From the NCBI GenBank assembly GCA_902806175.1, contig CADCVQ010000020.1, positions 1 through 35,505 of the forward strand: DNA of 35,505 nucleotides, in the 5' to 3' direction. Source of the stretch: an uncultured Solirubrobacteraceae bacterium (GTDB lineage: Bacteria > Actinomycetota > Thermoleophilia > Solirubrobacterales > Solirubrobacteraceae). The notes beneath the pieces are model-generated. The model was given only the letters and a program-made list of their open reading frames with translations, had not been told where the DNA came from and did not search any database. This document shows, piece by piece, positions 4,904 to 25,030 of this stretch. Made by a program: the position numbers and the translations under genes. Within the stretch, counting starts at the first letter, position 1; the number at the start of each line of letters is the position of its first letter.

Positions 4904-6250
4904 TCATCGAATGTCGACGGACCTGCTGACGGTCGAGCTGCGCGCCATCCTCAACTTCACCGTGTATGGGCCGCGCCCGACCGCGGCACGTAGCCGCACC
5001 GTGCGGGTGCGACCGGCGACGCCGCGAAAGCGCACCCGGGCCCGCCGTCGCGCGCCCTTGCGCAGCTCGACCGTGAGCTGCCCGGAGCGCCGCGGGAGGA
5101 CCCGGACCGCGAGCCCCGGCCCGCGCACCATCGCTCGGGTCGCCGAACGGGCGAGCCGGACAGTCGGGCGTAGGCGCTCGCTGGGCGCACGCACCATCGC
5201 CGCGAAGGCGGGCTTGCGCCGCAGGCCATACGTCAGCAGCCCCCAGTTGGCGCTGTCCGCCGCGGGCGGCTCGTCGAGGAGCGCCAGCCATCCGACGCCC
5301 GCAACCGCGGAGCCGAGCTCGTCGCCGATCGCGTAGCCGCGCGTCAGGTACTGCGCCTGCGCCGCGCGCGAGACGAAGGTCGCAAAGACGATCGAGCCGT
5401 GCTCGGACTGGATCGTGTACTCCGACAGCCACAGCGGCACCAACCGCCCGTACGCGCGGCGCACCTCGCGGCTGAGCGTGTCCGTGTCGCTGATGTCGCG
5501 AAAGCCGCCGGGCAACGGGCCCTCGGCGAGGTTCGGCCTGCGAAACGGGAACGGGTTGTGCCCGAACCAGTCAAGCCGCGGCGGCCGGCCACCGGGCAGG
5601 CGCATGTGGCGCAGGAAGTCCGGCGGCTTGACGGTCCCGCTCGTCCACGTGTTGGCGCCGATGACCTTGTTGTTCGGGCTCTGTGCCTTCAGCGCGGCGT
5701 AGGCGGCGTCCAGCAGCAGCGCGTACGTGCGCGGCCCGGCCGGATCGTTCTGCGCATTGGGCTGAAAGCGGTCGTCGCGATTGGGCTCGCCCCAGATCAT
5801 CCAGCGCCGCACGGCGGGGTAGCGGCGGGCGGCGGCGGTGAGGAAGTCCGCGTAGTCCCGCGGGTTGGTCGGCGCGTACGTCGACGGGCGGTTGCCGTTG
5901 GCCCATGGCGGGGCGTTGGATACCAGCAGCGACAGGCGGATCTCGTGCGCAATTGCTTCAGAGGCCGCCGCCGTGACGTCCGCGGGCCAACGGTAGGCGG
6001 GATCGGATGGGTCCGTCGGGGACGCCGGTCGGGACGTTGCGACATCCGCCCAGCTCACCGACATCTGCAACGTGTCGATTCCCAGCTCGTCGTAGAGCGC
6101 GAACGCCGAGCGTCCATCCGGCAGCGCGGCCGGACCCCACAGGGCCTTCTCGGCACCAGACGCAGGCGCGGCCAGCGCGAACACGAGCGCCGCGATCACC
6201 GGAACTGTTCGGGCGAAGCAGCCTGGTGGCCAGCCGGGTCGCATTCGCAC
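4904..6250 (-). CDS. Exported clan-A-like glycoside hydrolase (cellulase/xylosidase-like)
   Basis: 448 residues: a signal peptide (VIAALVFALAAPASGA), a TIM-barrel-like catalytic domain (about 35-350), and a basic beta-rich C-terminal region (about 355-448) that may bind the wall or a glycan. The probable acid/base is Glu155 in MIWGEPNR, the clan-A W-x-E-P pattern. The probable nucleophile is Glu277 in LWLSEYT. Other conserved spots are NAPPWANGN and GHNPFPFR. Sugar specificity is unknown. The gene at 22493 encodes a clear paralog without the basic tail; the two stand at the two ends of the polysaccharide locus. GTG 6250 and ATG 6244 are both possible starts and neither has a good ribosome site. 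Confidence 0.82.
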   Translation of the reverse strand: MRMRPGWPPGCFARTVPVIAALVFALAAPASGAEKALWGPAALPDGRSAFALYDELGIDTLQMSVSWADVATSRPASPTDPSDPAYRWPADVTAAASEAIAHEIRLSLLVSNAPPWANGNRPSTYAPTNPRDYADFLTAAARRYPAVRRWMIWGEPNRDDRFQPNAQNDPAGPRTYALLLDAAYAALKAQSPNNKVIGANTWTSGTVKPPDFLRHMRLPGGRPPRLDWFGHNPFPFRRPNLAEGPLPGGFRDISDTDTLSREVRRAYGRLVPLWLSEYTIQSEHGSIVFATFVSRAAQAQYLTRGYAIGDELGSAVAGVGWLALLDEPPAADSANWGLLTYGLRRKPAFAAMVRAPSERLRPTVRLARSATRAMVRGPGLAVRVLPRRSGQLTVELRKGARRRARVRFRGVAGRTRTVRLRAAVGRGPYTVKLRMARSSTVSRSVDIR

Positions 6251-6331: not shown

Positions 6332-9300
6332 GTGGGAATGGCTGAGTTGCCGCTCGAGGCACACCTGCTCGTCGGATTGGCGCTGGCGACGGCGATCGCG
6401 TACGCCGCTACGCCGGCCGCGATCCGGCTCGCCGCCTATTTTGAGTTCTACGACAAGCCGATCGGCTACAAAGGCCACGCGGCGCCGACGCCGTACCTCG
6501 GCGGCTTGGCCGTCATCACCGGCTTCGCGGTCGCAGTCCTCGCGTTGACATCAGACGCGGGCCGGACGCTGCCCGTGCTTGGCGGGGTAGTGATCCTGTG
6601 GGTCGTCGGAACCATTGACGACCGCGTCACGATCGGGCCGTTGCCGCGGGTCGCCGTCGAGGCCGCGCTGGCCGCGATGTTGTGGGCCACGAGCCTCGGT
6701 TGGTCGCTCGGTCTCGGAAGCGCCGTCGACCTCGCAGCGACAGTGATCTGGGTCATCGCCGTCGTCAACGCCTTCAACCTGTTCGACAACATGGACGGCG
6801 CGTCGAGCACGATGGCGTGCGTCGTCGCGGGCACAATCGCCGTGCTCGGGCTCGTGCAATCCGACGTCTGGCTCGTCGCCACCGGCGCCGCCCTCTGCGG
6901 CGCGTGCCTCGGGTTTCTGCCGCACAACCTGTCGCGCCCGTCGGCACGGATCTTCCTGGGCGACGGCGGCAGCATGCCCGTCGGCTTCGCGATCGCGGCG
7001 CTCGTGATGATCGGGGCCTCGTCGGCCGCCGCGGAATGGCAGGCGCTCGTGATGGGCCTGCTGCTCGTCGGCGTGCCGGCGCTCGACACGTGCCTCGTCG
7101 TCGTCTCGCGCCGCCGGCGCGGCATCTCGATCCTGACCGGCGGGCGCGACCACCTGACGCACCGCACCCGCGAGCGACTGCGCACCGCGCACGCGTCGGT
7201 CGCGGCGCTCGGCGCCGGCCAGGCGCTGCTGGCGGCGCTGGCGCTGGTTGCCGTGCAGGGCGGGCCGAATCTGCTCGTACCGGTCGTGCTGCTCTATCTC
7301 ACGTCGATGGCGGCGCTGATCGCCGTTCTCGACGCCGAGCCGCGCGCAGCGGAGGCAGGCGGCGCTGGGGTGGCGGCGCCGGCCGCGAGCGTCCATGACG
7401 CGAGCGGCGCCATCCGTACCCGCGGCGATGAGCCCGCCCGGGCGGTGCAGCGCTGGACGAACGTGCCCGCCCTTGCGGTACTCGCCGTCTTCGGCCTGGC
7501 GCTCGGCCTGAGCCCGCTCGCAGGGGGCTTCTACGACTCGTCGATCTGGGCGCAAGCCGGGATGGCGCTGCTGATCGTGCTCACCGCCGCGCTCATCGCG
7601 GGCCCCGTAGCGCTCCCGCGCCGCGCCGTCGTCGCGCCGGCGGCTGTCGCGGCGCTCGCCGCGCTGTCGCTCGCGTCGGCGCTCTGGACCGATTCGATCC
7701 AACAGGCAGTCGTGGAGGCAAACAGGCTGCTGATCTACGCCTCGGCCCTGGCGCTGCTGGTCGTGCTGCTGCGCAGCGACCGCGGGGCGGTTCTCGCCTT
7801 CGCCGCCTTTGCCGCGGGAGCGGTTGCGGTAGCGGGCTGGGTGCTCGCGGGAATGCTGCGCGGCGACGAATCGCTCTTTCTCGGCGGTCGCCTCAACGAG
7901 CCGCTGGGCTACATCAATGGCCAAGCGAGCTTCTTCGTGCTCGCGTTCTGGCCGTGCCTCGCACTTGGCGAGCGGCGCGGCGACGGCGGAGCTGCGACCC
8001 TGCTGGCCGGGCTCGGACTGGCGGCTGCGACGCTCTTCGCCGGCCTCGCCGTGCTGGGCCAGTCGCGTGGTGCGGCGCTCGCGGGCGCGCTGTCGCTGCT
8101 GCTCGTGGTCGCGCTGCTGCCGGGGCGGCTGCGGCGGATCGTCGCACTGCTCGCGAGCGCGGCGTGCCTGGCGCCCGCGATGCCGGTCCTGCTCGATGTC
8201 TACAGCGGGGGCGTCGCGCCCGGCGAGCTGCGCCACGCGACCGGCGCCGTTGCGCTGGCGTCCGCGGGAGCGGGCCTCCTCTGGGCGCTGCTCGTGGCCG
8301 TCGAGCGGCGGGCGCGCGCAAGCGGCCTGCGCCTGCGGCGCGCGGCCGTGGCCGGGGTCGCGGCGCTTGCCCTGGTGGGCGCTGCCGCCGCCGTCGTGTC
8401 GGCCGAGCGGATCGCGAGCTTCGCCGATCGCCAGTACACGGCGTTCGTGAAGCTCGGCGGTGCGCAGGGGGAGCCGACCGCATCGCGTCTGGCGACCGGC
8501 GCCGGCAACCGCTACGACTACTGGCGCATCGCGGTCGACACATGGCAGGCGAACCCGGTCGCGGGCGTCGGCGCCGGTGGCTATGACAAGCCCTACTTCG
8601 CGCGGCGAACGACGGGCGAGGACATCCGCCAGCCGCACAGCCTGCCGCTTCAGGTGCTCGCGGAGCTGGGGATCCTCGGAGGTGTGGTCTTCGCCGCCGC
8701 GCTCCTGCTGATCGCTGCCGGTACGTGGCGGCGGATCCGCAACGGCGGGCGAGCGCCGATTGTCGTGGCCGGACTGGGCGTGGCGACGGCTTGGTTCGTG
8801 CACACCAGCGTTGACTGGATGCACCTGCTGCCGGGACTGACCGGCGTGGCGCTGCTGGGCGCGGCAGTGCTGCTGCGCCCCTCTGATATGCGCGACAGCA
8901 CGCGATCGCGAACGGATGGCGCCGCACCGCGACCCGCTGGGCCGCGCTTCGCGCCCGCGATCCTCGTCGGCATCGCGATCACGGTCAGCGCGCTCAGCCT
9001 CAGCCGCCAAGGCCTGTCGCAGCACTACGTCGAACGCGCGCAGTCAGCGCTGGCGAGCGACCCTGAGCGCGCGCTCGTCGAGGCCAACCGCGGGCTGCGC
9101 CTCGACCGCGAGGCGATCTCCGCCTATTACGCGAAGGCGGCCGCACTAGCGCGCTTCGGCGAGGGTGACGCCGCGCGCGATGTGCTGCTCGAAGCGACGC
9201 GGCGCGAACCGCGCAACTTCGTGACCTGGGCGTTGCTAGGGGATCTGTCGGTACGCCAAGGCGATCTGCGTGCAGCGCAGGCCGACTATCGTCGGGCCGC

Positions 9301-9382
9301 GCGACTCAATCCGCGCGACCGCGGCCTCGCTACGCTCGCAGCGGACCCACGGGCGGCAGTCAAGCGGCTGGAAGGCAAGTAG
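6332..9382 (+). CDS. Fusion: WecA/MraY-type sugar-phosphate transferase + O-antigen-ligase-like domain + TPR
   Basis: 1016 residues in one uninterrupted frame. Residues 1-335 are a polyprenyl-phosphate sugar-1-phosphate transferase with the family motifs in order: YKGHAAPTPYLGG (46-58), GTIDD (93-97), NAFNLFDNMDG (146-156), ARIFLGDGGS (205-214) and DHLTHR (273-278). A hydrophilic linker (about 335-375) follows. Residues 380-850 are a second multi-pass domain of the O-antigen ligase/polymerase type, with GQSRGA (576-581) and the signature HSLPLQVLAELGILGG (769-784). A last membrane segment (875-892) leads to two TPRs (900-1000). Initiation and polymerisation or ligation of a lipid-linked glycan thus appear joined in one chain. 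GTG 6332 and ATG 6338 are alternative starts; no strong ribosome site is seen. Confidence 0.88.
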   Translation: MGMAELPLEAHLLVGLALATAIAYAATPAAIRLAAYFEFYDKPIGYKGHAAPTPYLGGLAVITGFAVAVLALTSDAGRTLPVLGGVVILWVVGTIDDRVTIGPLPRVAVEAALAAMLWATSLGWSLGLGSAVDLAATVIWVIAVVNAFNLFDNMDGASSTMACVVAGTIAVLGLVQSDVWLVATGAALCGACLGFLPHNLSRPSARIFLGDGGSMPVGFAIAALVMIGASSAAAEWQALVMGLLLVGVPALDTCLVVVSRRRRGISILTGGRDHLTHRTRERLRTAHASVAALGAGQALLAALALVAVQGGPNLLVPVVLLYLTSMAALIAVLDAEPRAAEAGGAGVAAPAASVHDASGAIRTRGDEPARAVQRWTNVPALAVLAVFGLALGLSPLAGGFYDSSIWAQAGMALLIVLTAALIAGPVALPRRAVVAPAAVAALAALSLASALWTDSIQQAVVEANRLLIYASALALLVVLLRSDRGAVLAFAAFAAGAVAVAGWVLAGMLRGDESLFLGGRLNEPLGYINGQASFFVLAFWPCLALGERRGDGGAATLLAGLGLAAATLFAGLAVLGQSRGAALAGALSLLLVVALLPGRLRRIVALLASAACLAPAMPVLLDVYSGGVAPGELRHATGAVALASAGAGLLWALLVAVERRARASGLRLRRAAVAGVAALALVGAAAAVVSAERIASFADRQYTAFVKLGGAQGEPTASRLATGAGNRYDYWRIAVDTWQANPVAGVGAGGYDKPYFARRTTGEDIRQPHSLPLQVLAELGILGGVVFAAALLLIAAGTWRRIRNGGRAPIVVAGLGVATAWFVHTSVDWMHLLPGLTGVALLGAAVLLRPSDMRDSTRSRTDGAAPRPAGPRFAPAILVGIAITVSALSLSRQGLSQHYVERAQSALASDPERALVEANRGLRLDREAISAYYAKAAALARFGEGDAARDVLLEATRREPRNFVTWALLGDLSVRQGDLRAAQADYRRAARLNPRDRGLATLAADPRAAVKRLEGK

Positions 9383-9388
9383 AGACGT

Positions 9389-9892
9389 ATGGTCAAACAC
9401 AGTCGGTCCTTGTTCGGCGCCCTCGTGGTCGCGCTGGCGTTCGTTGTGCCCGCGCCGGCGTTCGCACAGAGCGATGCCCCGCGCGTCGACCCCGACTCCC
9501 CCGCCGGCATCGAGTACGAGCTGCCAATCGACCGGGCTCGCGAGGACGCGGTCGGCGGCGGGGCGGGCGGCTCGTCGGGCCGATCGGCCGGCGGCTCGTC
9601 GCGCGCAACGGCCGGCGAGTCACCGCTGTTCGGCGAGGGCGTGACGCGCTCCGCATCGGGCTCCGTGGCGAAGGGCGGTTCAGGCAGCGGGAAGGCATTG
9701 CCGAAGACGAGCGCGACCACAGCCGAGCCGTTCGAAGGCGCGGCGCCCGGGTCGGCGACGGTTCGCGCCCAGACGCCGTCACCCGACAGCGGCGGCGGCG
9801 AGTTGCTCACGCTCGCCGCGGGCGCGGGCGGGGTGCTGCTGCTCGGAGGGCTCGCCGGTCTGCTGTGGCGGCGGCGTTCTATCCCAGGCTGA
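9389..9892 (+). CDS. Small exported protein with C-terminal membrane anchor
   Basis: 167 residues: a signal peptide (VKHSRSLFGALVVALAFVV, cut after APAFA near residue 26), a low-complexity Gly/Ser/Ala/Pro region (50-130), one membrane segment (about 137-160, LLTLAAGAGGVLLLGGLAGLLW) and a basic end RRRSIPG. The topology is a short extracytoplasmic stalk anchored by its C-terminus. It starts 6 bp after the fusion gene and ends 3 bp before the epimerase, so it is almost certainly cotranscribed with both. No family is recognised. A scaffold or wall-spanning role next to the polymerase is inference. Confidence 0.75.
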   Translation: MVKHSRSLFGALVVALAFVVPAPAFAQSDAPRVDPDSPAGIEYELPIDRAREDAVGGGAGGSSGRSAGGSSRATAGESPLFGEGVTRSASGSVAKGGSGSGKALPKTSATTAEPFEGAAPGSATVRAQTPSPDSGGGELLTLAAGAGGVLLLGGLAGLLWRRRSIPG

Positions 9893-9895
9893 CCG

Positions 9896-10864
9896 ATGAA
9901 GATGCTCGTTACCGGCGGTGCCGGCTTCATCGGGTCGCATCTCGCCACGCGCCTGCTTGAACTCGGGCACGACGTCCGCGTGCTCGACAACTTCGCAACG
10001 GGACGGCGCTCGAACATCGACGCGATCGGCGGCGACGTCGAGCTCATCGAGGGAGACATCCAGAGCTACGAACGGGCGCACAAGGCGGTGCGCGGCTGCG
10101 ACATCGTCTTTCACCAGGCGGCGCTGCCGTCGGTTCCGAGGTCGATCCAGGACCCGCTTACCAGCAACGCCACGAACGTCATCGGCACGCTGAACGTCCT
10201 GCTCGCGGCCCGCGACGAGGGCGTCCTGCGCGTCGTATGCGCGTCGTCGTCGTCGGTCTACGGATCCAACCCGAAGCTGCCCAAGCACGAGGACATGGCG
10301 ACGTTGCCGATCTCGCCCTACGCGACCGCGAAGCTGGCAGGCGAGGGCTACTGCCGCTCGTTCGGCATCGGATATGGCCTCGAGACCGTGGCGCTGCGCT
10401 ACTTCAACGTCTTCGGCACGCGGCAGGACCCGACCTCACAGTACGCCGCCGTGATCCCGAACTTCATCAGCGCGATGCTCGACAACCGCCCCGTCACGAT
10501 CTTCGGCGACGGCGAGCAGTCGCGCGACTTCACCCATGTCGACAACGTCGTGCAGGCAAACCTGCTGGCGATGGACGCGGTGGACGTCTCCGGCAAGGTC
10601 TACAACATCGCGTACGGGCGCAAGGTCACGCTCAACGAACTCGTCGACGAGCTACAGGCGCTGACCGGCATCGAGATCGACGTCGCGTACGAACCGGCTC
10701 GAGCCGGGGACGTCAAGCATTCCCTGGCCGACCTGACGCGCGCGCGTCAGCATCTTGGCTACGAGCCGCAGGTCGACCTCCGCGAAGGCTTGAGCCGGAC
10801 GGTCGCGGCGTACCGAGCGGAGCGCTCGGACGAGCGGCGCGCAGCGCACCTGCCAGCTGGATGA
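9896..10864 (+). CDS. NAD-dependent sugar-nucleotide epimerase (UDP-GlcNAc/UDP-Glc 4-epimerase-like)
   Basis: 322 residues of the extended SDR family. The Rossmann motif GGAGFIGSH is at 7-15, the catalytic Ser lies in SSSSVYG (about 116-122), and Tyr-x-x-x-Lys is in SPYATAK (about 140-146). Substrate-region features NVFGTRQDP, FGDGEQSRDFTHV and YNIAYG fit 4-epimerases acting on UDP-hexoses or UDP-N-acetylhexosamines, with some resemblance to the WbpP/TviC branch. It would supply an epimerised donor for the repeat unit. The start ATG is 3 bp after the previous stop, and the stop overlaps the next start as ATGA, so it is translationally linked to the GT4 gene. Confidence 0.88.
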   Translation: MKMLVTGGAGFIGSHLATRLLELGHDVRVLDNFATGRRSNIDAIGGDVELIEGDIQSYERAHKAVRGCDIVFHQAALPSVPRSIQDPLTSNATNVIGTLNVLLAARDEGVLRVVCASSSSVYGSNPKLPKHEDMATLPISPYATAKLAGEGYCRSFGIGYGLETVALRYFNVFGTRQDPTSQYAAVIPNFISAMLDNRPVTIFGDGEQSRDFTHVDNVVQANLLAMDAVDVSGKVYNIAYGRKVTLNELVDELQALTGIEIDVAYEPARAGDVKHSLADLTRARQHLGYEPQVDLREGLSRTVAAYRAERSDERRAAHLPAG

Positions 10865-12048
10865 GCGACGCAGGGATGCGCCGCGTCCGGGTCATGCGCG
10901 TGATCGCCCGGCTCAACGTCGGCGGTCCCGCGCACCACGTCAGCATTCTGTCCGGGCGCCTCGACCCGGCGCGCTACGAGACTGTCCTTCTCGCAGGCCG
11001 CCTGGGCCCGGGGGAAGGCTCGTTTGAGCATCTTCCGCAGCATCACGGCGCAGAGGTGAGCTATGTCGACGGCCTGGCGCCTGAGCTTGCGCCTGCGGAT
11101 GATGCCCGTGCCTTGGCCGCGATCGTGCGCGCAATGCGACGGTTCCGGCCCCACATCGTCCACACGCACACTGCGAAGGCCGGCACCCTGGGAAGGATCG
11201 CCGCCCGCGCAGCGCTGGGACCGCGGGCGGTCGTCGTTCACACCTACCATGGGCACGTGCTGTCGGGGTACTTCGGTCCGATGAAGACGCGCGTCTTTCG
11301 TGGAATCGAGCGAACACTCGCAGCCGTGAGCGACCAGTTGATCGGAGTCAGCAGTGCGACGGTCGAGGAGCTCGTTGCGATGCGGATCGCACCGCGCTCG
11401 CGCTTCAGCGTCGTACCGATCGGCCTCGACCTCGAGGGCTTTCTCGCCGCGGAGCCTCGCGACGGCGAAGCGTTTCGCCGCGAGGTCGGGGCCGCGCCCG
11501 ACGAGATCCTCGCGCTGTTCGTCGGTCGGCTCGCCCCGATCAAGCGCCTCGATGTGCTTCTCGAAGGCGTGGCGGTCGCCCGTCGCGAGGGTGCAGCCGT
11601 GCGGCTGGCGATCGTCGGTGACGGAGCGCTGCGCGGCGACCTCGAAGCACGCACCCGTGCGCTCGGACTGATTGAACACGTGAGCTTCTGCGGCTTTCGC
11701 TCGGACCTCACGCGCATCGTCGCTGCCGCCGATGTGGCCGTCCTGTCGTCGGACAACGAGGGGACGCCGGTCGCGCTCATCGAAGCGGCCGCTGCCGGAC
11801 GGCCGGCGGTCAGTACACGCGTCGGCGGGGTCGCTGACATCGTTCGCGGCGAAACGGGATTACTTGTCGCGCCGGGGGACTCGCAGGCGCTCGGACAAGC
11901 GCTGGCACGGATCTCTGCGGACACCGCGCTCCGGGGCCGCATGGGGGCTGCGGCCCGCGCCCACGTGCGCGACACCTTCGACGCGCAACGACTCGTCCGC
12001 GACATCGACGACCTCTACGTGAGACTGCTCGCACGTCGAGGCGGCTGA
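10861..12048 (+). CDS. GT4-family glycosyltransferase
   Basis: 395 residues with a GT-B fold, a retaining transferase using a nucleotide sugar. The amino-terminal loop is RLNVGGPAHH (about 16-25), the acceptor-side stretch HTHTAKAG lies near 101-108, and the donor region has VGRLAPIKRLD. The diagnostic EGTPVALIEAAAAG (about 300-313) includes the E-x7-E pattern of GT4. It would add one sugar to the lipid-linked repeat unit on the cytoplasmic face. The start ATG 10861 overlaps the epimerase stop (ATGA). The frame stays open for about 620 bp upstream, but that part is antisense-like coding inside the epimerase and has no GT homology. asnB follows 4 bp after the stop. Confidence 0.9.
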   Translation: MSDAGMRRVRVMRVIARLNVGGPAHHVSILSGRLDPARYETVLLAGRLGPGEGSFEHLPQHHGAEVSYVDGLAPELAPADDARALAAIVRAMRRFRPHIVHTHTAKAGTLGRIAARAALGPRAVVVHTYHGHVLSGYFGPMKTRVFRGIERTLAAVSDQLIGVSSATVEELVAMRIAPRSRFSVVPIGLDLEGFLAAEPRDGEAFRREVGAAPDEILALFVGRLAPIKRLDVLLEGVAVARREGAAVRLAIVGDGALRGDLEARTRALGLIEHVSFCGFRSDLTRIVAAADVAVLSSDNEGTPVALIEAAAAGRPAVSTRVGGVADIVRGETGLLVAPGDSQALGQALARISADTALRGRMGAAARAHVRDTFDAQRLVRDIDDLYVRLLARRGG

Positions 12049-12052
12049 GCTG

Positions 12053-13981
12053 ATGTGCGGGATCTGCGGATGGGTTGGCCGAACGGCGATCGAGCCTCGG
12101 GAGCGCGGCCGCGAGGTCGCGCTGTCGATGGCATCGGTCATCGCGCACCGCGGCCCGGATGGCGACGGCGCGCATGAGATCCACGGCGACCACGCTGCTG
12201 GCTGGTTCGCGCATCGCCGCCTGCGCGTCATCGACCTGACCGAAGCCGCCGCTCAGCCCATGGTCGGCGAGGTGTCGGGATCGATCCTGGTGTTCAACGG
12301 CGAGATCTACAACTTCCGCGAGCTGCGCGCACACCTCGGCGCTGCCGGCTTCGGCGTGCGATCCACGGGCGACACCGAGGTTGTCCTGCGGGCCTACGAG
12401 GCGTGGGGCCCGCAGTTCGTGACGCACCTCGATGGGATGTTCGCGATCGCGCTCTGGGACGAGCGGCGCGCAGAACTGCTTCTGGCTCGGGACCGGACGG
12501 GCAAGAAGCCGCTGTTCTACACGCTTCGCGACGGATGTCTGGCGTTCGCGTCGGAGGTCAAGGCGCTCGCGAGGATGCCCGGCGTGACGCTCGAACCGGA
12601 CCCGTCGGCGTTTCCCGAATTCCTCCTGTCCGGCTACATCGACGCGCCCGCGACGATCTACCGTGGCATCGCGCAGGTGCCGCCCGCCGGCATGTTGCGC
12701 TTCGCGCCGCGCGAGGGCCGGATGAGCGTCGAGCATTGGTGGTCGCCGCTACCCGCCGGTCCGCCGCGGCAGGTCGACAAGCCGCTACTCGACGAGCTGC
12801 GCGGGGCGGTGGACGGCGCCGTCGAGCGGCGCCTTGTCGCGGACGTCCCCGTGGGAGCGCTGTTGTCGGGCGGCATCGACTCGTCCGTCGTGACGGCGTT
12901 GATGTGCAAGCACGCGCGCGGTCGGGTGCGGACCTTCTCGGCCGGCCTCGCGGACGAGCCGACCTTCGATGAGCGTTCGCATGCGCGCGACGTCGCCACC
13001 CATCTCGGAACCGATCACACCGAGTTCGCGGTCCGCGCCGATGCCGTCGCGCTGCTCGACCGTCTCATCTGGCTGCACGACGGTCCCTTCGCGGACTCGT
13101 CGGCCATCCCGACGTACCTCGTCTGCGAAGCCGCCCGCGATCAGGTGACCGTCGTTCTGACCGGCGACGGCGGCGACGAGGTCTTCGCCGGCTACCAGCG
13201 CTTTGCGGCCGCCGCGCTCAGCCGTCTCGTGCGTCCCGACGTCGCGCGTCTGGGGCTGCGGGCGTTATCGCTCGACGGAGGGGGTGAGACCTATCACGAC
13301 CCGAGGCGAGCCCTGCGGCGATTCTTGCTTGCGTGCGCGCTCACCCCGGACGATCGTTACCGGCAATGGGTCAGCGTCTTCGACGAGGAGCACGTGCGCA
13401 AGCTGGCGGGGGTGGGACCGGCGCATGGCGCCTTCGCCGCCGCGATGACCGAGGCCGCCAGGCTTCCTCCGATCGACCGGCTCCTCCACGCGAACTTCGT
13501 GACGTACCTGCCGGGTGATCTGCATGTGAAGGTCGATCGCTGCTCGATGGCGCACGGACTCGAGGCGCGCTCACCCTTGCTGGATACGGCGGTGATCGAG
13601 CTCATGGCGAAGGTTCGCGCCCGCGACAAGGTCGGGCTGCGCCATCCGAAGCCAGTACTGCGCAAGGCCTTTCGCGACATCGTGCCCGCACCGGTCTGGA
13701 CGCGCGCCAAGCACGGGTTCGGCGTCCCGATGGACACCTGGTTCGACGGCGAGCTCGGCCGCGTCTACGTCGATGAGGTCCTCGGCCGCGATCGCAGGCT
13801 GACCGAGTGGCTGCAACCCGAGCCGCTCTCGCGCCTGTGGGCCGAGCATTCGTCCGGCGCGGCTCGTCACGGCGCCCGGCTGTGGACGCTGCTGACGCTC
13901 GAGCGCTGGCTGCGGGCACTCGACGAGCCGCAGCAGCTGAGCGAGCCGCAGTCGCCGACGATCGACGCCGCCGTCCGCTAG
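12053..13981 (+). CDS. asnB: Glutamine-hydrolysing asparagine-synthase-family amidotransferase
   Basis: 642 residues. Cys2 of MCGICGWVG is the class-II glutaminase nucleophile; the glutaminase part (1-210) has HRGPDGDG and FNGEIYNF. The synthase part (about 230-600) has the ATP-pyrophosphatase loop LLSGGIDSS near 270 and LTGDGGDEVFAGYQRF. The reaction is amidation of a carboxylate with ammonia from glutamine through an acyl-AMP. In polysaccharide loci, members of this family are thought to amidate uronic-acid residues or act in related steps (WbpS-like); here that is inferred from context, and ordinary asparagine synthesis is the alternative. Its TAG stop shares a CTAG palindrome with the stop of the opposite gene. 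Confidence 0.9.
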   Translation: MCGICGWVGRTAIEPRERGREVALSMASVIAHRGPDGDGAHEIHGDHAAGWFAHRRLRVIDLTEAAAQPMVGEVSGSILVFNGEIYNFRELRAHLGAAGFGVRSTGDTEVVLRAYEAWGPQFVTHLDGMFAIALWDERRAELLLARDRTGKKPLFYTLRDGCLAFASEVKALARMPGVTLEPDPSAFPEFLLSGYIDAPATIYRGIAQVPPAGMLRFAPREGRMSVEHWWSPLPAGPPRQVDKPLLDELRGAVDGAVERRLVADVPVGALLSGGIDSSVVTALMCKHARGRVRTFSAGLADEPTFDERSHARDVATHLGTDHTEFAVRADAVALLDRLIWLHDGPFADSSAIPTYLVCEAARDQVTVVLTGDGGDEVFAGYQRFAAAALSRLVRPDVARLGLRALSLDGGGETYHDPRRALRRFLLACALTPDDRYRQWVSVFDEEHVRKLAGVGPAHGAFAAAMTEAARLPPIDRLLHANFVTYLPGDLHVKVDRCSMAHGLEARSPLLDTAVIELMAKVRARDKVGLRHPKPVLRKAFRDIVPAPVWTRAKHGFGVPMDTWFDGELGRVYVDEVLGRDRRLTEWLQPEPLSRLWAEHSSGAARHGARLWTLLTLERWLRALDEPQQLSEPQSPTIDAAVR

Positions 13982-14835
13982 CTCTCGGATGCCGGCAGCG
14001 TCGCCTTGACGCCGCAGGCACACCAGTACGGAGCCTGCGTACTGACGACGACGCTCACCAGGCCGGCGTCGGTGAGCATCTCCACGACCTCCTCCTTCGT
14101 GAAACGCCTCTCCAGCCGCGTGCCGAACCGGTCCAAGGCGTCGTTGCGCATCGTGTACAGGCTGCGGTCTCGGTAGAACGACAGCGGCCACCCGTCGACG
14201 GTGCGCCCGCGTCGCTCTGCCGATCTCGCCGCTCGGCCGAGCGGCAGATAGACCAGGACGGCGATCACATTCGTCACCGCGAGCTTTCGTCGATGCGGCC
14301 AGCGGGAGATCCGCTGCCGCAGCGCGCTGACGCCGCGAAAGAGCGCGCGAAACCACCACGGACGTCCGTCGAGCGCGTAGTAGAGGTACACGAGAAACGG
14401 CGCGCCGGCGCGCAGTCGTGAGACGCACGAGGCGATCGCCGCGCTGGTGTGGGGAACGTGATGCAGCACGCCGAGCGAGTACCCGAAGTCCATCGACGCA
14501 GGTGCCAGCGGAAGATCGGACACAGACGCCAGGTGGAAGTCCACGTTCGAAGACCCGGCAAGCACACGCCGCGCCACGTCGAGCGCGCCCGCGCTCGCGT
14601 CGATGCAGTGCAGTCGCCCCACCCGCGGTGCGACGAACCGCGCCCACCTGCCGCTTCCGCAGCCGGCATCGAACCCCACGGCGGCGTCGGGCAGGTCCTC
14701 CCACGGAAAGACCGAGAAATAGCGTTCGAACTGCCGCACCAGCTCCTCCGGCGGAACGTCGGAGGAGTCAAACGTCTGCCATTCACGGCCGAAGTCCGCG
14801 ACGACGAGCTCATCGACGTTGGGATCGCTCACCAC
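13978..14835 (-). CDS. Class I SAM-dependent methyltransferase
   Basis: 285 residues. The SAM-binding motif I is GFDAGCGSGRWAR (54-66), the acidic end of strand 2 is CIDAS, and motif LGVLHHVP follows. A middle insertion (about 155-215) is basic and hydrophobic (PWWFRALFRG, AVTNVIAVLVYLPLG) and may lie on the membrane near lipid-linked intermediates. The acceptor is probably a sugar hydroxyl or carboxyl of the repeat unit, which is inference. The gene converges on asnB with a 4-bp overlap and starts (GTG GTG) beside the next gene on the other strand. Confidence 0.85.
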   Translation of the reverse strand: MVSDPNVDELVVADFGREWQTFDSSDVPPEELVRQFERYFSVFPWEDLPDAAVGFDAGCGSGRWARFVAPRVGRLHCIDASAGALDVARRVLAGSSNVDFHLASVSDLPLAPASMDFGYSLGVLHHVPHTSAAIASCVSRLRAGAPFLVYLYYALDGRPWWFRALFRGVSALRQRISRWPHRRKLAVTNVIAVLVYLPLGRAARSAERRGRTVDGWPLSFYRDRSLYTMRNDALDRFGTRLERRFTKEEVVEMLTDAGLVSVVVSTQAPYWCACGVKATLPASES

Positions 14836-15946
14836 GCCAGGCTACCGGCAGCCCCTGCGCCCTACGGTCATCATCAGCACCGTGAACTACGCGATCGCGA
14901 CGGGAGCTCAAGGTCCGCAGGGTCCGGGGCTACGCATCCGACTGATGCTTCCTGCTGGGCATCTGAGCGAGCATGGCGTGACGCTCGTGCCGATGCCGCT
15001 GTTCGCGGCGGGTGAGGCCGATGCCGTGCACAGGGGTTCGACGGCAGCCCGAACCAGGGTTGTGATCGGCGCCCGTCGCCGGTTCCGGCGGGTGCTGCGC
15101 GACGTCGATGCCGATGTCGTGGTCATCCAGCGCCAAGTCGATCCGCTTCCGGGGCGTGGGCTCGAGCGGGCCGTCATGCGCAAGCGCGCGCTGGTGCTCG
15201 ACGTGGACGATGCGGTCTGGCTGCCGGAGCCGGGCAGCCACCCGCTCACACGGTTGCGGCGCAGCGCTCAGAAGCTCCAGTGGCTTGCCTCACACGCGGA
15301 CCGCGTCATCGCGGGCAACGACTACCTCGCGGAGTGGCTGAGCCGGCATGCGCGGGACGTGCGGGTCATCCCGTCGCTCGTCGACACAGGGAACGTGGCG
15401 CTGCGCACCCACCGCGACACCGGTGAGTTCGTCCTCGGATGGATCGGGTCGCCGTCGACGGCCCGATACCTGCGAAGCGTGGTCGCTCCGGTTGCGGCCT
15501 TCGCCGCGTCGCACCCGGACCTGAACGTCAGACTGGTGGCCGTCGGCGGACCGCCGCCCCAGATCGCCGCAGTCCGCTGCGAGCAGTGGCCGTGGAGCGC
15601 GGCCAACGAGGCCGCCGCCCTGGAGCAGATGGACGTCGGGCTGATGCCGCTGCCCGACAACGCGTGGACGCGCGGCAAGTGCGCGTACAAGGCCCTGCAG
15701 TACATGGCGGCAGGCGTGCCCGCCGTCGCCGACGACGTCGGGCTCACGGGACAGGTGGTAGGCGACGAGGCAGGCGGGCTGCTCGCGCGGTCGCCGGCGG
15801 ACTGGCAGCACGCCCTGGAGCGACTGGCAGCGAGCGTCGGCCTGCGATCTCACCTGGGCGCGACGGGCCGGGCTCGTGTCGAGGCGGAGTACTCGGTGCA
15901 GGCCTGGAGCTCCCGCCTCGCGGCTGTCATCTCGGGGGCTCGCTGA
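14819..15946 (+). CDS. GT4-like glycosyltransferase
   Basis: Up to 375 residues. The carboxy half has the pattern MPLPDNAWTRGKCAYKALQYMAAGVP (split here as MPLPDNAW, RGKCAYK, LQYMAAGVP), which marks a GT4 subgroup with Lys-rich donor site. The centre has WIGSPST and VLDVDDAVWLP. It probably transfers one sugar of the repeat unit. The start is uncertain. TTG 14819 opens the frame but would overlap the 5' end of the divergent methyltransferase by 17 bp. GTG 14881 (STVNYAIATG) or ATG 14944 are possible; homologs usually begin just before a strand like TVNYAIATG, so 14881 is attractive. None has a good ribosome site. The flippase gene follows 7 bp after the stop. Confidence 0.85.
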   Translation: MGSLTTPGYRQPLRPTVIISTVNYAIATGAQGPQGPGLRIRLMLPAGHLSEHGVTLVPMPLFAAGEADAVHRGSTAARTRVVIGARRRFRRVLRDVDADVVVIQRQVDPLPGRGLERAVMRKRALVLDVDDAVWLPEPGSHPLTRLRRSAQKLQWLASHADRVIAGNDYLAEWLSRHARDVRVIPSLVDTGNVALRTHRDTGEFVLGWIGSPSTARYLRSVVAPVAAFAASHPDLNVRLVAVGGPPPQIAAVRCEQWPWSAANEAAALEQMDVGLMPLPDNAWTRGKCAYKALQYMAAGVPAVADDVGLTGQVVGDEAGGLLARSPADWQHALERLAASVGLRSHLGATGRARVEAEYSVQAWSSRLAAVISGAR

Positions 15947-15953
15947 CAAACCC

Positions 15954-17369
15954 ATGCTCGAGCCATCACTGGAGCACGGCAGCGCGCCCGCCAGCGGCAG
16001 GCGGCAGGTTGCTGAGTCGGTTGCAACGCTCGCAATAGGCGACCTGATCAACAAGGCCGCGAGATTCGCTGCCATCGTCGTGCTGACGCGAGCTCTCCCA
16101 CTCGATCAGTACGGCCTGCTGAACCTCGGGGTCGCGCTCGGCGGGATCGCGGTCGTGATCATGCGACTCGGGCTTCCCGACCTGGGGTCGCGCGAAGTCG
16201 CGATCGCCGGGAATCGCCGCGAGGAACTGGCGGCGCGGATCGTCCCGCCACAAGCCGGGGGCCTCGTCGCGCTCACCTTGTTCGCGTCCGCGGTGGTGCT
16301 GCTCGTGCACCCTGCCGCGATGCCCTTCGTCCTGCTCAGCGGCGCGAGCACGCTCGGCCTCGCACTGTCGGCGGACTGGCTGCTGCGCGGCATGGAGCGA
16401 ATGGTCCCGCTCGCTGTCTCCTCGGTGATCGGCGGGCTGACGGTGCTCGCCGGCGCGATCCTCGTCGCCGCAACCTCTGACAGTGCTACGGCGGGCCTGG
16501 CGGCGCTCGCCGTGGGGGAGCTTGCGGCGGCCGCGGTCACGTGGCGGGCGGCCCGGCTGCGGCGATTGCCGCGACCGACGCTTCGCGGGGTGGGTGGGCT
16601 ACTACGGGAGTCGTGGCCGATGGCGCTCGCCGGCGTCGTCATGTACGCCTACTACGCCAACATCGACACCGTCCTGCTCGCGGCGATCCATTCGCCCGAG
16701 GAAGCAGGGCTGTACAGCGCGCCATACCGGCTGTTCCTCGCACTGAACGTCGTCGGCATATTCGCCGCATACGCGCTGCTGCCACTCGCTTCGCGGGCCT
16801 CCGACGGCGAGGCACGCCGCGAGGCCATGCGGCTCATCGTCAGCTGTCTGCCGCCGCTGGCGGGGTTCGGCCTGCTGTGCCTGGGCCTGGCGGAGCTCCT
16901 GGGGCGCCAAGTGCTCGAGGCCGTGTTCGGCCCGCCGTTCGCGCAGATGGCCACGACGTTCGTGCTGCTCTGCACCGCCGTCCCGTGGTACGCGATCGGC
17001 TACCCCGCCGGCTACTCCGCGATCGCGAGCGGAAACCAGCGCCGGCTCCTTGCAGGCGCGAGCGTTGCCGTCGTCTGCAACATCATCCTCAACGCGGCAC
17101 TCATCCCGGTGTTCGGGGCCGAGGGCGCGGCCGTTGCGACAACCGTTGCAATGATCGCTGCAGCGGTCACGTGGCTCAGAGCGCAGATGATCCTCGAGCG
17201 CCTCCGCGCGCTGGTCTGCCTCCTCGCACTGGCGACAATCGCAGCGGGTGCTGCAGCGCTCGTGGAGACAATCCGGCCGATCGTGGGCTCGGCGACGCTC
17301 GCGGCCGGCGCTGCGCTTCTCCTGGTCGGTACGCCGAACAGCCTGCGACGCCTGCTGCGTCAGCGTTGA
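15954..17369 (+). CDS. Wzx-type polysaccharide flippase (MOP/PST superfamily)
   Basis: 471 residues with about 12-14 membrane segments. The amino-terminal pattern SVATLAIGDLINKAARFAAI, then RALPLDQYGLLNLG, is typical of oligosaccharide flippases. Further signs are PMALAGVVMYAYYANIDTVL and GLYSAPYRLFLALN in the seventh and eighth segments. It would move the undecaprenyl-linked repeat unit to the outer face. ATG 15954 is chosen because it sits 7 bp after the previous stop and gives a normal soluble amino-terminal lead. The frame is open for 26 more codons upstream, inside the GT gene. The 3' end overlaps the convergent methyltransferase by 10 bp. Confidence 0.9.
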   Translation: MLEPSLEHGSAPASGRRQVAESVATLAIGDLINKAARFAAIVVLTRALPLDQYGLLNLGVALGGIAVVIMRLGLPDLGSREVAIAGNRREELAARIVPPQAGGLVALTLFASAVVLLVHPAAMPFVLLSGASTLGLALSADWLLRGMERMVPLAVSSVIGGLTVLAGAILVAATSDSATAGLAALAVGELAAAAVTWRAARLRRLPRPTLRGVGGLLRESWPMALAGVVMYAYYANIDTVLLAAIHSPEEAGLYSAPYRLFLALNVVGIFAAYALLPLASRASDGEARREAMRLIVSCLPPLAGFGLLCLGLAELLGRQVLEAVFGPPFAQMATTFVLLCTAVPWYAIGYPAGYSAIASGNQRRLLAGASVAVVCNIILNAALIPVFGAEGAAVATTVAMIAAAVTWLRAQMILERLRALVCLLALATIAAGAAALVETIRPIVGSATLAAGAALLLVGTPNSLRRLLRQR

Positions 17370-18263: not shown

Positions 18264-19985
18264 TCAACGATCCCGCGTGCCGGGCCCGAACGTGATGCCG
18301 CCGTCCGCTTCGGTGCGATGGACCTCGTAAACGCGTCCATCGCCGCCGCGCACCCGCAGGAAGACGTCCTCCGGCTGCGTGAACACGGCGATGACGCCGG
18401 GCGGCGGAAGAGGCTCGCTGTACGTCGCTTGAGGCAGGAACTTCACCCCCGGTCGGCTGACCGCGAGCCGGGTAGCGAGGCTCAGCGGAACTGGGTACCG
18501 GCCGGTCTCCGTGTAGACATAGCGGGCCTTCTCGACGGCGTCGTGAAGTTCATTCGAGGCGACCGTCTCGCGTTGCGAAGGCTTGCTGGACGAGGCGACG
18601 GCTACGACACCGGCAGAGGCCAGTAGGGTGGCGGCGCCCAGGGCTGTCGCCACCCTCCGCCGCGCGACAAGGCGCGCCACCATGCGCCGGGCCGCCCCCG
18701 GCTGGAGCAAGACCGAAAGGACCGGACCAAGTAAGAGGTACTGCCACGTCAGGCTCGTCGATAGCACGTTCGACAGAGGGCTGTAGGCGATGACATACAG
18801 CAGGATGGCGGCCGTCCACAACCCGAGGAAGGTTGGCGCCGCCGCGAGGCGCAACCGTGCACTTGTGGCGACGTAACCGACGAGCAGCGGCAGTAGGAGC
18901 ACCCCCGCGACACGGAAGTCCAGCCAGAAGCTCCCCAGCCAGCTGTAGTTGCTGAACGCCTCGAAGGGAATGGAGTAGAAGACGCCTGTCTCGACGGGCG
19001 CGGTTTCGACGAGTCCCGCGCGAGCAGCAGCCTTCACAGCAGGAAGGACCGCCATCTGTCCGATGGTGTTCGGAGCGAGTTCGTCCTCGGTCAGCTTCCC
19101 GAAGGTGGGAATGTTGGCGGTGAGGTAGAGGTACGGAATAGCGACGGCGTCCAACGCCGGGATCTGCACGTGAGCTTCCACCTCGGGGTGGTCGTCGAGG
19201 GAGCCGCCGTACCGGTTCCCGATCGCGGTCAGGCCGGCCGCCGCGATCACCAGGGCGAGCCCCAGCACGATGGCAACGCGGCGCAACGAGCCGTTCCAAG
19301 GCCACAACACGTGCAGCATGCATGTCAGGGCGATCGCTGCGGCCATGAGGTTCCGATCGCCCGTGAACACGAACGGGATCAGCGAGACGAATCCGGCCGC
19401 CGCTGCAAGACGCCAGCGCCCGGAGAAGATGCGCAGGCGGATCCCCACAGTCCACATCACAAAGGCGACCTGGTTGAAGTAGGTCAACAGCTTCCACAAG
19501 CCGTAGGCATCCTGAAACTCGACCGAATCGCGTTTGAGCGCACGCACCTCACCGGGACTGCTGAAGACCGCCTGCCAGCCTGCCACCCGGTCGATGGCGT
19601 ATACGAACGCGGCGAACCCGATGGCGCCGAGCACCGCGCAGCCCAACCAGACATGACGCAATCGCCCGGGATCAATCGTGGCACGCAGCAAGCGCTGCTG
19701 CTCATCGGCCGGCGCTGGAGGCGATTCCCAGCGCGGCCGCGCAGCGAGGCAGCCGAGAGTTGTGGCGGCGATGGAGCCATAGAGGAGAGCCCAGGCCTCG
19801 ACCGTCGTGGGCGCATACGAGATAATGGGGAGCGCGAAGAGCAGCAGGACCAAGGCCCAGGCGCCGACGAAGAGGCACGCAACGTGGACGGACGGCCCGG
19901 ATCGCCATCCTCGGCGGACGACGACGAACAGAGTCATGAGGAGCATCGACGCAGCGAGCGCAGCAACGATCCTCTCAAGCGACAT
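18264..19985 (-). CDS. Wzy-like polysaccharide polymerase with a soluble C-terminal domain
   Basis: 573 residues. About eleven membrane segments span residues 5-440. A long extracytoplasmic loop (about 265-340) lies before FSNYSWLGSFWLDFRVAG, a region where Wzy-type polymerases carry conserved aromatic and acidic residues. Primary sequence is poorly conserved in Wzy, so the call rests on topology and on its place between flippase and modifying enzymes. After the last segment (about 465-480) comes a soluble domain of about 90 residues (NELHDAVEKARYVYTETGRYP and on) that looks like the globular part of a pilin or pseudopilin. That likeness is by eye only. It is coupled to the methyltransferase after it. 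Confidence 0.72.
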   Translation of the reverse strand: MSLERIVAALAASMLLMTLFVVVRRGWRSGPSVHVACLFVGAWALVLLLFALPIISYAPTTVEAWALLYGSIAATTLGCLAARPRWESPPAPADEQQRLLRATIDPGRLRHVWLGCAVLGAIGFAAFVYAIDRVAGWQAVFSSPGEVRALKRDSVEFQDAYGLWKLLTYFNQVAFVMWTVGIRLRIFSGRWRLAAAAGFVSLIPFVFTGDRNLMAAAIALTCMLHVLWPWNGSLRRVAIVLGLALVIAAAGLTAIGNRYGGSLDDHPEVEAHVQIPALDAVAIPYLYLTANIPTFGKLTEDELAPNTIGQMAVLPAVKAAARAGLVETAPVETGVFYSIPFEAFSNYSWLGSFWLDFRVAGVLLLPLLVGYVATSARLRLAAAPTFLGLWTAAILLYVIAYSPLSNVLSTSLTWQYLLLGPVLSVLLQPGAARRMVARLVARRRVATALGAATLLASAGVVAVASSSKPSQRETVASNELHDAVEKARYVYTETGRYPVPLSLATRLAVSRPGVKFLPQATYSEPLPPPGVIAVFTQPEDVFLRVRGGDGRVYEVHRTEADGGITFGPGTRDR

Positions 19986-21330: not shown

Positions 21331-22308
21331 TCAAACGACGGCAGCCTCAGCCTGCTGGAAGCTGATCACGTCGCCAAGGATCTCGTCCAGCGACCGCGTC
21401 GGCGCCCACGCCACGGCACGCTGGATCTTCGCGATGTCCGGATAGCGCCGCGGCATGTCCTCGAAACCCTCCTCGTAGGCCTCTGCGTACGGGATCACGT
21501 GGATCTCGGAGTCCGAACCTGCCAGCGCGCGCACGCGCTCCGCGAGACCGAGGATCGAGATCTCCTCCTGGGAGCCGATGTTGAACACCTGCCCGTACGC
21601 CTCGTTTCCAAGCAGCATGAGGTCGACGAGTGCCTGCACGACGTCCTCCACATGGCAAAAGCAGCGCGTCTGCGTCCCATCGCCGAAGACCGTCAGCGGA
21701 CGCTCGCCGAGGGCCTGCGAGACGAACTTCGGCACGACCATGCCGTAGCGGCCGGTCTGCCGCGGACCGACCGTGTTGAACAGCCGCGCGACCACGGTGG
21801 GCAGCTTGCGCTCCTTCCAGTAGGCGAGCGCGAGGAACTCGTCGATCGCCTTCGAGCAGGCGTAGGACCAGCGGCCGGTCGTCGATGCGCCCATGACGAG
21901 GTCGCCGTCCTCGTGGAATGGAAACTGGGTCGACTTGCCGTAGACCTCGCTGGTCGACGCGACGAACACCGGCTTGCGCTTCTTGGCGGCCTGCGCGAGC
22001 ACGACCTCCGTGCAGTGCACGTTGGTCTCGATCGTGCGCACCGGGCTCTCCACGATGAGGTCCACGCCGACGGCGGCGGCCAGGTGGTAGACGATGTCGG
22101 CGTCGTCCACCAGCTCGGCCACGATCGACGTACTGGCGCACGTCTCGATCGTGTAGCTAAAGCGCGGGTCGTCCTTCAGATGGCGCACGTTGTCGATCGA
22201 CCCGGTCGAGAGATCGTCGAGGACGTGAACGCGATGGCCGCGTACCAGGAGCTCTTCGGCGAGGTGCGAGCCGATAAAGCCCGCGCCGCCCGTGATAAGG
22301 AACCGCAA
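21331..22308 (-). CDS. NAD-dependent epimerase/dehydratase (extended SDR)
   Basis: 325 residues. The Rossmann loop GGAGFIGSH is at 7-15, the catalytic Ser in STSEVYG (about 117-123), and Tyr-x-x-x-Lys in WSYACSK (about 148-154). LFNTVGPRQTGRYGMVVP and FGDGTQTRCFCHVEDVV match UDP-sugar epimerases and decarboxylases (UDP-glucose 4-epimerase or UDP-glucuronate decarboxylase-like). The exact product cannot be fixed by eye. The start is TTG 22308, with AAGG about 5 nt before it. It is divergent from the second glycoside hydrolase, with 184 bp between the starts. Confidence 0.88.
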   Translation of the reverse strand: MRFLITGGAGFIGSHLAEELLVRGHRVHVLDDLSTGSIDNVRHLKDDPRFSYTIETCASTSIVAELVDDADIVYHLAAAVGVDLIVESPVRTIETNVHCTEVVLAQAAKKRKPVFVASTSEVYGKSTQFPFHEDGDLVMGASTTGRWSYACSKAIDEFLALAYWKERKLPTVVARLFNTVGPRQTGRYGMVVPKFVSQALGERPLTVFGDGTQTRCFCHVEDVVQALVDLMLLGNEAYGQVFNIGSQEEISILGLAERVRALAGSDSEIHVIPYAEAYEEGFEDMPRRYPDIAKIQRAVAWAPTRSLDEILGDVISFQQAEAAVV

Positions 22309-24754: not shown

Positions 24755-25017
24755 CCTCGTTGAAGGTACCTCTCGGTACGGCGAGAAGGCGCACGGAGCG
24801 GCGCTGGCTTCCTCGGCGTGAAGCGCTCGCCGCGGTGGGTGTGCAGCTCGGGCGAGCTTCCGCAGTGACGCGTGCCGTACGCCTGAGAAACGCTACGAAG
24901 GCGTCTTGTTCGGTTGGCATCCGGTGCAACAGGCTGCAGTCATGCATGACGGCGCGATGTTCGGGGACGGCGGGTGAGTGGGCGCTCCACGCGCTCGTCG
25001 GCGCGACCGGCCGGGAG

Positions 25018-25023
25018 TACCAT
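25018..25023 (+). promoter_or_regulatory. Candidate -10 box for a leaderless Uma2 transcript
   Basis: TACCAT fits TANNNT and lies 7 nt before ATG 25031. There is no Shine-Dalgarno sequence between. No clear -35 is seen. Confidence 0.35.
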
Positions 25024-25030
25024 CGGCGCC

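What the first reader, a model, noticed from the sequence alone, without database searches (positions are those of the whole stretch)
6332..9382. Single-chain fusion of a WecA-type initiating transferase with an O-antigen-ligase-type polymerase and TPRs
Intact motifs of the sugar-phosphate transferase family (KGHAAPTP, NLFDNMDG, LGDGGS, DHLTHR) and of the O-antigen ligase family (SRGA, HSLPLQVLAELGILGG) lie in one uninterrupted frame. The first step on the lipid carrier and a late polymerisation or transfer step are normally separate proteins. Joining them could channel lipid-linked intermediates or couple initiation to capacity for export. I know of no described system built this way.
Basis: partly seen in the sequence, partly recalled or inferred. 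Interest (0 to 1): 0.8.

Follow-up and report, generated by a model that had tools for sequence, protein, structure and literature searches.

The report
Glycan-starting enzyme fused to glycan-transfer enzyme
A group of soil bacteria makes one long membrane protein that joins the enzyme that starts a surface sugar chain to an enzyme of the type that finally hands the finished chain over to its target, next to a small exported protein that may be that target; I found no description of this joined form.

Summary
Window 6332-9382 is one 1016-residue ORF with a polyprenyl-phosphate sugar-1-phosphate transferase (PGT) half, an O-antigen-ligase (Wzy_C) half and a C-terminal TPR. Both Pfam cut-offs are passed, all catalytic residues are kept, and the AlphaFold model matches MraY (Z 33) and WaaL (Z 19.7). 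It is not a frameshift artefact: full-length homologues (44-82% identity) occur in over ten other Solirubrobacterales genomes, some on single finished contigs. Both halves are under purifying selection (dN/dS 0.15 and 0.25; linker 0.85). Separate-gene versions lie in the same gene clusters, and trees show that fused genes have also split again.

Several clusters carry a second, variable polymerase-type protein (in the window 18264-19985), while the fused protein is conserved. A small exported, tail-anchored protein (9389-9892), in 27 of 32 genomes with the ligase half and 2 of 200 others, usually sits beside that half and is a candidate acceptor or accessory. I propose a "bookend" enzyme: its first and last steps handle the same lipid-linked reducing-end sugar. 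Direct channelling is implausible, because the two sites should face opposite sides of the membrane. Activities are inferred. Known parts, apparently undescribed combination.

The parts
6332..7333 (+). PGT half (residues 1-334): MraY/WecA-superfamily polyprenyl-phosphate HexNAc-1-phosphate transferase domain, 11 predicted membrane helices, motifs DD 96-97, NxxDNMDG 149-156, GDGGS 210-214, DHLTHR 273-278
   Evidence: Pfam PF00953 87.9 bits; AF2 model and MraY Z 33; invariant residues; dN/dS 0.15
7334..7447 (+). linker (residues 335-372), predicted disordered and fast-evolving; expected on the cytoplasmic side
   Evidence: pLDDT < 50 at 339-366; dN/dS 0.85; variable in alignment A1
7448..8917 (+). 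ligase half (residues 373-862): WaaL/Wzy_C fold; R579, R727, H769 match the order of the essential WaaL residues R215, R288, H338
   Evidence: Pfam PF04932 61.7 bits; WaaL 7tpg Z 19.7 over 375 residues; invariant in 22 sequences; dN/dS 0.25
8918..9379 (+). last membrane helix (about 873-893) and C-terminal TPR domain (about 894-1011), expected outside the membrane
   Evidence: TPR structures Z ~17; helix list; side of membrane inferred by helix parity; dN/dS 0.19
9389..9892 (+). small exported protein (167 aa): signal peptide, conserved VDPxSPAxxEYxxPxxxAR and LFGxGV motifs, low-complexity Gly/Ser/Ala/Pro-rich middle, C-terminal membrane helix with RRR tail; starts 6 bases after the fusion's stop codon
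   Evidence: alignment A5; co-occurrence with the ligase half
9896..10864 (+). nucleotide-sugar epimerase/dehydratase of the cluster
   Evidence: Pfam Epimerase 3e-64
10864..12048 (+). family-4-type glycosyltransferase (exact start not determined)
   Evidence: Pfam Glycos_transf_1 and Glyco_trans_1_4
12053..13981 (+). asparagine-synthase-like amidotransferase of exopolysaccharide clusters
   Evidence: Asn_synthase 2e-94; TIGR03108 492 bits, below its cut-off
14819..15946 (+). second glycosyltransferase
   Evidence: Glyco_trans_1_4 5e-9
15876..17369 (+). Wzx-type flippase
   Evidence: Polysacc_synt 6e-24, over cut-off
18264..19985 (-). candidate separate repeat-unit polymerase (573 aa, multi-pass)
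   Evidence: TIGR04370 33.7 bits, cut-off 40; homologue beside Wzx in L049 scores 69.6
21331..22308 (-). nucleotide-sugar epimerase/dehydratase conserved in most of the clusters (62-79% in many)

Best explanation
It is a 'bookend' enzyme of a Wzx/Wzy-type surface-glycan pathway. SHOWN: one chain with two intact enzyme halves of known fold plus a TPR domain, conserved as a fusion in Solirubrobacterales. INFERRED: (1) The PGT half, at the cytoplasmic face, puts a sugar-1-phosphate (probably a HexNAc) on polyprenyl phosphate. (2) Separate glycosyltransferases extend it, the Wzx flips it, and a separate, variable polymerase (18264-19985) joins repeats. (3) The ligase half, on the outer face, uses R579, R727 and H769 to break the bond between the polyprenyl diphosphate and the same reducing-end sugar, and moves the glycan to an acceptor. 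(4) The extracytoplasmic TPR and the adjacent small tail-anchored protein act with the ligase; that small protein is the candidate acceptor, or else an accessory factor. (5) The fusion keeps first and last enzymes, which recognise the same lipid-linked reducing-end sugar, at equal numbers in one place.
For: Domains, folds and catalytic residues. Three essential residues of WaaL/PglL (R215/R224, R288/R298, H338/H349; PMC3643930) have counterparts in order, and the R-P-G-G spacing (R727, +15 P, +18 G, +20 G) equals that reported for PglL (R298, P313, G316, G318). Ligase rather than polymerase: a second polymerase-type protein in the window (TIGR04370 33.7 bits), G191 (47.6) and G111 (69.6), a weak one in G064 (22.5), and a second Wzy_C protein in the G009 and G065 clusters; that protein and the flippase vary between clusters while the PGT and ligase halves are found throughout. 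Ligase and PGT halves co-occur, 24 of 232 genomes with both, Fisher 8e-20. Small partner: 27 of 32 genomes with the ligase half, 2 of 200 others, Fisher 6e-28, adjacent in most, including G064 where the PGT half is absent. PglL-type ligases are often encoded next to their acceptor protein (PMC3643930). Topology fits: 11 PGT helices end inside, where ligases begin (inference).
Against: No activity has been measured. The window's polymerase candidate is under its family cut-off, and its homologues were not found in most fused genomes with that query, so some clusters may lack a second polymerase. The ligase half does not match the PglL-specific Pfam models at E 0.001, and TfpM scores only 31 against 600. 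AlphaFold gave no confident contact between small protein and fusion. Co-occurrence thresholds were chosen after seeing the data, and related genomes are not independent.
Confidence: 0.5

Rival explanations
1. The Wzy_C half is the repeat-unit polymerase: the fusion joins initiation to polymerisation, and the small protein is a chain-length or assembly factor.
For: Wzy_C members include polymerases as well as ligases, and sequence alone does not separate them (PMC4594306). No homologue of the window's second polymerase candidate was found in most other fused genomes.
Against: A second polymerase-type protein is present in several clusters. The fused half is conserved across clusters whose glycosyltransferases, flippase and polymerase differ, as expected for a ligase, less so for a structure-specific polymerase. 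No match to TIGR04370 by this half.
Confidence: 0.3
2. The fusion has no special mechanism. It is a tethered pair of ordinary enzymes that arose because the genes were neighbours; it only fixes stoichiometry. (Compatible with either role of the second half.)
For: Tandem overlapping genes in G138, separate genes in the same cluster in G065, G109 and G111, and clean absence of the PGT part in G064, a member of the same genus. Fused genes do not form one clade (AU p about 1e-60), and splits sit inside a fused clade (p 1e-4).
Against: The fused form persists over wide divergence (44-82% identity, two families) with a non-conserved linker, so it is at least maintained.
Confidence: 0.35
3. The single frame is an assembly, frameshift or high-GC artefact.
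For: High-GC genomes give long spurious frames: there is an 824-aa antisense ORF at 6551-9025, and the 500-aa N-terminal extension in G027 is spurious. Some apparent splits are themselves gaps (G201).
Against: Collinear full-length homologues in at least ten independent assemblies, including single-contig ones; purifying selection in both halves.
Confidence: 0.01

Closest known systems
WecA/TagO and MraY (polyprenyl-phosphate HexNAc-1-phosphate transferases, PF00953)
   Same: Fold (Z 33 to MraY), Mg-site and sugar-site motifs, family cut-off passed
   Different: Fused to a second enzyme; far below the WecA-specific model; every genome searched keeps other PF00953 proteins besides
WaaL O-antigen ligase (PF04932; PDB 7tpg; CAZy GT121 by description)
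   Same: Fold over 375 residues, counterparts of the three essential residues
   Different: N-terminal PGT domain, C-terminal TPR, extra helices, and no evidence for an LPS acceptor
PglL/TfpM O-oligosaccharyltransferases encoded next to their target protein (PMC3643930)
   Same: Same Wzy_C family, R-P-G-G spacing, small exported protein encoded beside it
   Different: PglL-specific profiles not matched; acceptor role untested
WadA, an O-antigen ligase joined to a GT25 glycosyltransferase domain (described in PMC10920833)
   Same: A precedent for a ligase fused to another transferase
   Different: There the partner adds the last core sugar; here it makes the first lipid-linked sugar, at the other end of the pathway

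Membership tests
Polyprenyl-phosphate HexNAc-1-phosphate transferase superfamily (PF00953) | Pfam cut-off passed | tested here: met
   87.9 bits against 27
Polyprenyl-phosphate HexNAc-1-phosphate transferase superfamily (PF00953) | Catalytic motifs kept (DD, NxxD..DG, GDxGS, H-loop) | tested here: met
   invariant or nearly so in alignments
Polyprenyl-phosphate HexNAc-1-phosphate transferase superfamily (PF00953) | MraY/GPT fold | tested here: met
   Z 33.5, 287 residues, rmsd 2.3
Polyprenyl-phosphate HexNAc-1-phosphate transferase superfamily (PF00953) | Transfers HexNAc-1-phosphate from UDP-sugar to polyprenyl phosphate | not testable with these tools
   needs biochemistry
WecA proper (TIGR02380) | Curated cut-off | tested here: not met
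   100.6 bits against 326
O-antigen ligase / Wzy_C (PF04932) | Pfam cut-off passed | tested here: met
   61.7 bits against 31.7
O-antigen ligase / Wzy_C (PF04932) | WaaL fold | tested here: met
   7tpg Z 19.7, rmsd 4.4, 375 of 403 residues
O-antigen ligase / Wzy_C (PF04932) | Two essential Arg and the His | tested here: met
   R579, R727, H769 invariant in 22 sequences, in the order of WaaL R215, R288, H338; correspondence by order and spacing, not by superposition
O-antigen ligase / Wzy_C (PF04932) | Transfers glycan from polyprenyl-PP to an acceptor | not testable with these tools
   needs biochemistry
PglL-type O-oligosaccharyltransferase | PglL-specific Pfam models | tested here: not met
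   none reported at E <= 0.001; TfpM 31.4 against 600
PglL-type O-oligosaccharyltransferase | Gene beside an exported target protein | tested here: inconclusive
   conserved exported neighbour; modification not tested
Oligosaccharide repeat unit polymerase (TIGR04370) | Profile match of the fused half | tested here: not met
   not reported for the fusion or its second half, but found for a separate gene
Exosortase/PEP-CTERM system (for the small protein and the amidotransferase) | Exosortase in the genome | tested here: not met
   no PF09721 match in 8 genomes, own included

The most novel reading that the evidence does not exclude
A self-contained surface-glycosylation module: one protein both starts and finishes each glycan (PGT plus ligase), and attaches it to a dedicated small tail-anchored acceptor protein encoded beside it, recruited by an extracytoplasmic TPR. 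This would be a dedicated protein-O-glycosylation or wall-anchoring system in a Gram-positive-type phylum.
Probability: 0.25. Interest if true: 0.8.

Novelty: new variant of a known kind. Interest (0 to 1): 0.62.

Why it matters
How the polyprenyl carrier is shared between competing glycan pathways, and how first and last steps are coordinated, are open questions. A natural fusion with natural split relatives in the same gene cluster lets one ask directly whether linking the two enzymes changes yield or carrier recycling. It also offers a way to find acceptors of O-antigen-ligase-type proteins in bacteria not expected to make LPS, through the conserved small neighbour.

Tried and rejected
Frameshift or assembly artefact: rejected by homologues. 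Extra N-terminal domain in G027 (1539-aa ORF): rejected by codon composition, the antisense strand encodes what reads as a flippase. G201 as a tandem split: not usable, a run of N lies between the halves. PEP-CTERM/exosortase explanation of the small protein: no exosortase found. AlphaFold of fusion plus small protein, reading the stop as Gln: small protein at pLDDT below 50, no interface; a first alignment for it misplaced the small proteins. Foldseek alone did not list WaaL among its top rows, but VIA-align did. Profile search of PDB sequences with the ligase half returned only TPR proteins among the rows shown. Literature searches for a PGT-Wzy/WaaL fusion found none; most subscription papers are not held. 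The fusion was not seen outside the order in samples of 299 genomes of the class and 396 of the phylum; other phyla were not sampled.

Full report
Observation. The ORF at 6332-9382 is a single 1016-residue frame. Pfam assigns Glycos_transf_4 to residues 81-228 and Wzy_C to 641-788, both well over their cut-offs, and TPR models lie just under cut-off at 931-996.

Not an artefact. Full-length, collinear homologues occur in at least ten other genomes at 44-82% identity. They include G036 (82%, 10 contigs; the same protein is in the public MAG JAUJOT010000001.1, Solirubrobacteraceae), G031 (one contig), G074, G207 and G208 (about ten contigs each). Between the window and its closest relative dN/dS is 0.15 in the PGT half, 0.25 in the ligase half, 0.19 in the TPR part, and 0.85 in the linker. 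Both enzymes are under selection inside the fused gene, and the linker is nearly free.

Structure. AlphaFold on a 40-sequence alignment gave mean pLDDT 88.5 and pTM 0.82, with a disordered linker at 339-366. The first 311 residues match MraY (Z 33.5) and human GPT (Z about 28), residues 376-853 match WaaL (7tpg, Z 19.7, 375 residues), and 894-1011 match TPR proteins (Z about 17). Counting helices, the PGT half has eleven and should end in the cytoplasm, where the ligase half begins; the catalytic loop of the ligase half and the TPR should then be outside. This topology is inference from helix parity and from known topology of the families.

Catalytic residues. In the PGT half D96, D97, N149, D152, D155, D211, D273, H274, H277 and R278 are invariant or nearly so. 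In the ligase half R520, N529, R579, R727, R732, G745, G747, H769, D828 and W829 are invariant in 22 fused and separate relatives. The order R579, R727, H769 corresponds to E. coli WaaL R215, R288, H338, and the spacing R727, P742, G745, G747 equals PglL R298, P313, G316, G318 (residues as given in PMC3643930).

Evolution. In the order (232 genomes) the fused form is in two families. Relatives with separate genes in the same kind of cluster exist: in G065 a UDP-sugar dehydrogenase gene lies between the halves on the other strand; G138 has overlapping tandem genes; G109 and G111 have the halves as divergent genes near the same Wzx, epimerase and amidotransferase genes. In G064, of the same genus, the syntenic gene lacks the PGT part, while upstream sequence up to the start is similar, and its ligase half nests inside the fused clade. 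On the ligase-half tree the fused proteins do not form one clade (AU p about 1e-60), and a clade of family-1 fused proteins without G064 and G065 is rejected (p 1e-4); at least five changes between fused and separate are needed. Fission has therefore happened, and either the fusion is old or it arose more than once. G138 could also be a frameshift in assembly. The fusion was not seen outside the order in samples of the class and phylum.

Ligase or polymerase. The window also encodes a separate multi-pass protein with a sub-threshold match to the oligosaccharide repeat-unit polymerase model (TIGR04370, 33.7 against 40). A protein of this kind near the fusion or split pair scores over the cut-off in G191 (47.6) and G111 (69.6), weakly in G064 (22.5), and a second Wzy_C protein sits in the G009 and G065 clusters. 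Between clusters the PGT, the ligase half and one epimerase persist while glycosyltransferases, flippase and polymerase differ or are missing at this sensitivity. A conserved start and end with a variable middle is what initiating transferase and ligase would show, since both act on the reducing-end sugar on its lipid carrier. I therefore favour ligase or oligosaccharyltransferase over polymerase, at about 0.5 to 0.3. A caveat: homologues of the window's polymerase candidate were not found in most fused genomes with that single query.

The small neighbour. Six bases after the stop codon starts a 167-residue protein with a signal peptide, a motif VDPxSPAxxEYxxPxxxAR, a motif LFGxGV, a low-complexity middle rich in Gly, Ser and Ala, and a C-terminal membrane helix followed by basic residues. 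Relatives follow the fusion directly in most clade-I clusters, precede it in G028, are divergent from the ligase gene in G109-G111, and follow the solitary ligase half in G064. In the order 29 of 232 genomes have it: 27 of the 32 with the ligase half against 2 of the other 200 (Fisher 6e-28). Of the two exceptions, G023 has a truncated ligase half beside it and G055 a PGT half cut by the contig end. The threshold was set by me after the fact, and the genomes are related, so the p-value is a guide only. PglL-type ligases are often encoded beside their acceptor (PMC3643930), and their other acceptor sites lie in flexible low-complexity regions; acceptor is therefore my preferred role, accessory factor the alternative. 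AlphaFold found no contact.

Mechanism. Shown: the chain, its folds, its conserved residues, its company. Inferred: the PGT half primes the carrier inside; other enzymes extend, flip and polymerise; the ligase half releases the glycan from the same carrier-linked sugar outside; the TPR and the small protein assist or receive. Metabolite channelling from one site to the other is implausible across the membrane and across the intervening steps. Equal numbers, common location and carrier recycling are plausible gains.

Known context. A ligase fused to a glycosyltransferase is known (WadA, as described in PMC10920833), but I found no account of a ligase or polymerase fused to the initiating transferase in the library I could search. 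Each half belongs to a known superfamily; the combination, its splitting history and the small partner appear new.

Noticed in passing
9389-9892 and relatives (alignment A5): Unannotated small tail-anchored exported protein family that tracks the Wzy_C-TPR gene across the order; used in the main argument, but its function is unknown.
   Followed up: partly
4904-6250 (-) and 22493-23650 (+): Two paralogous exported proteins (one with a weak cellulase/GH5-like signal) that recur in most clusters carrying the fused protein; possibly a glycan-trimming hydrolase of the pathway.
   Followed up: partly
L047, 7995-10137: A duplicated fragment of the first ~120 residues of the PGT half lies upstream of the fused gene, separated by an ORF that looks like an AAA-type ATPase (my reading), perhaps an insertion.
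   Followed up: no
3975-4748 (-): Protein with nine RTX calcium-binding nonapeptide repeats next to the cluster.
   Followed up: no
12053-13981: Asparagine-synthase-like protein closest to the XrtA/PEP-CTERM amidotransferase model although no exosortase was found in the genome.
   Followed up: partly
6551-9025 (-): 824-residue open frame antisense to the fused gene; taken as a high-GC by-product, since selection and homology are on the sense frame.
   Followed up: partly
L063, L064, L068 and L069: In a sister lineage (g25) the separate PGT gene is preceded by an ORF that joins two nucleotide-sugar epimerase domains in one chain (about 680 aa).
   Followed up: no
24974-25600: Uma2-family putative endonuclease between the glycan cluster and the dnaK-grpE-dnaJ operon.
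   Followed up: no
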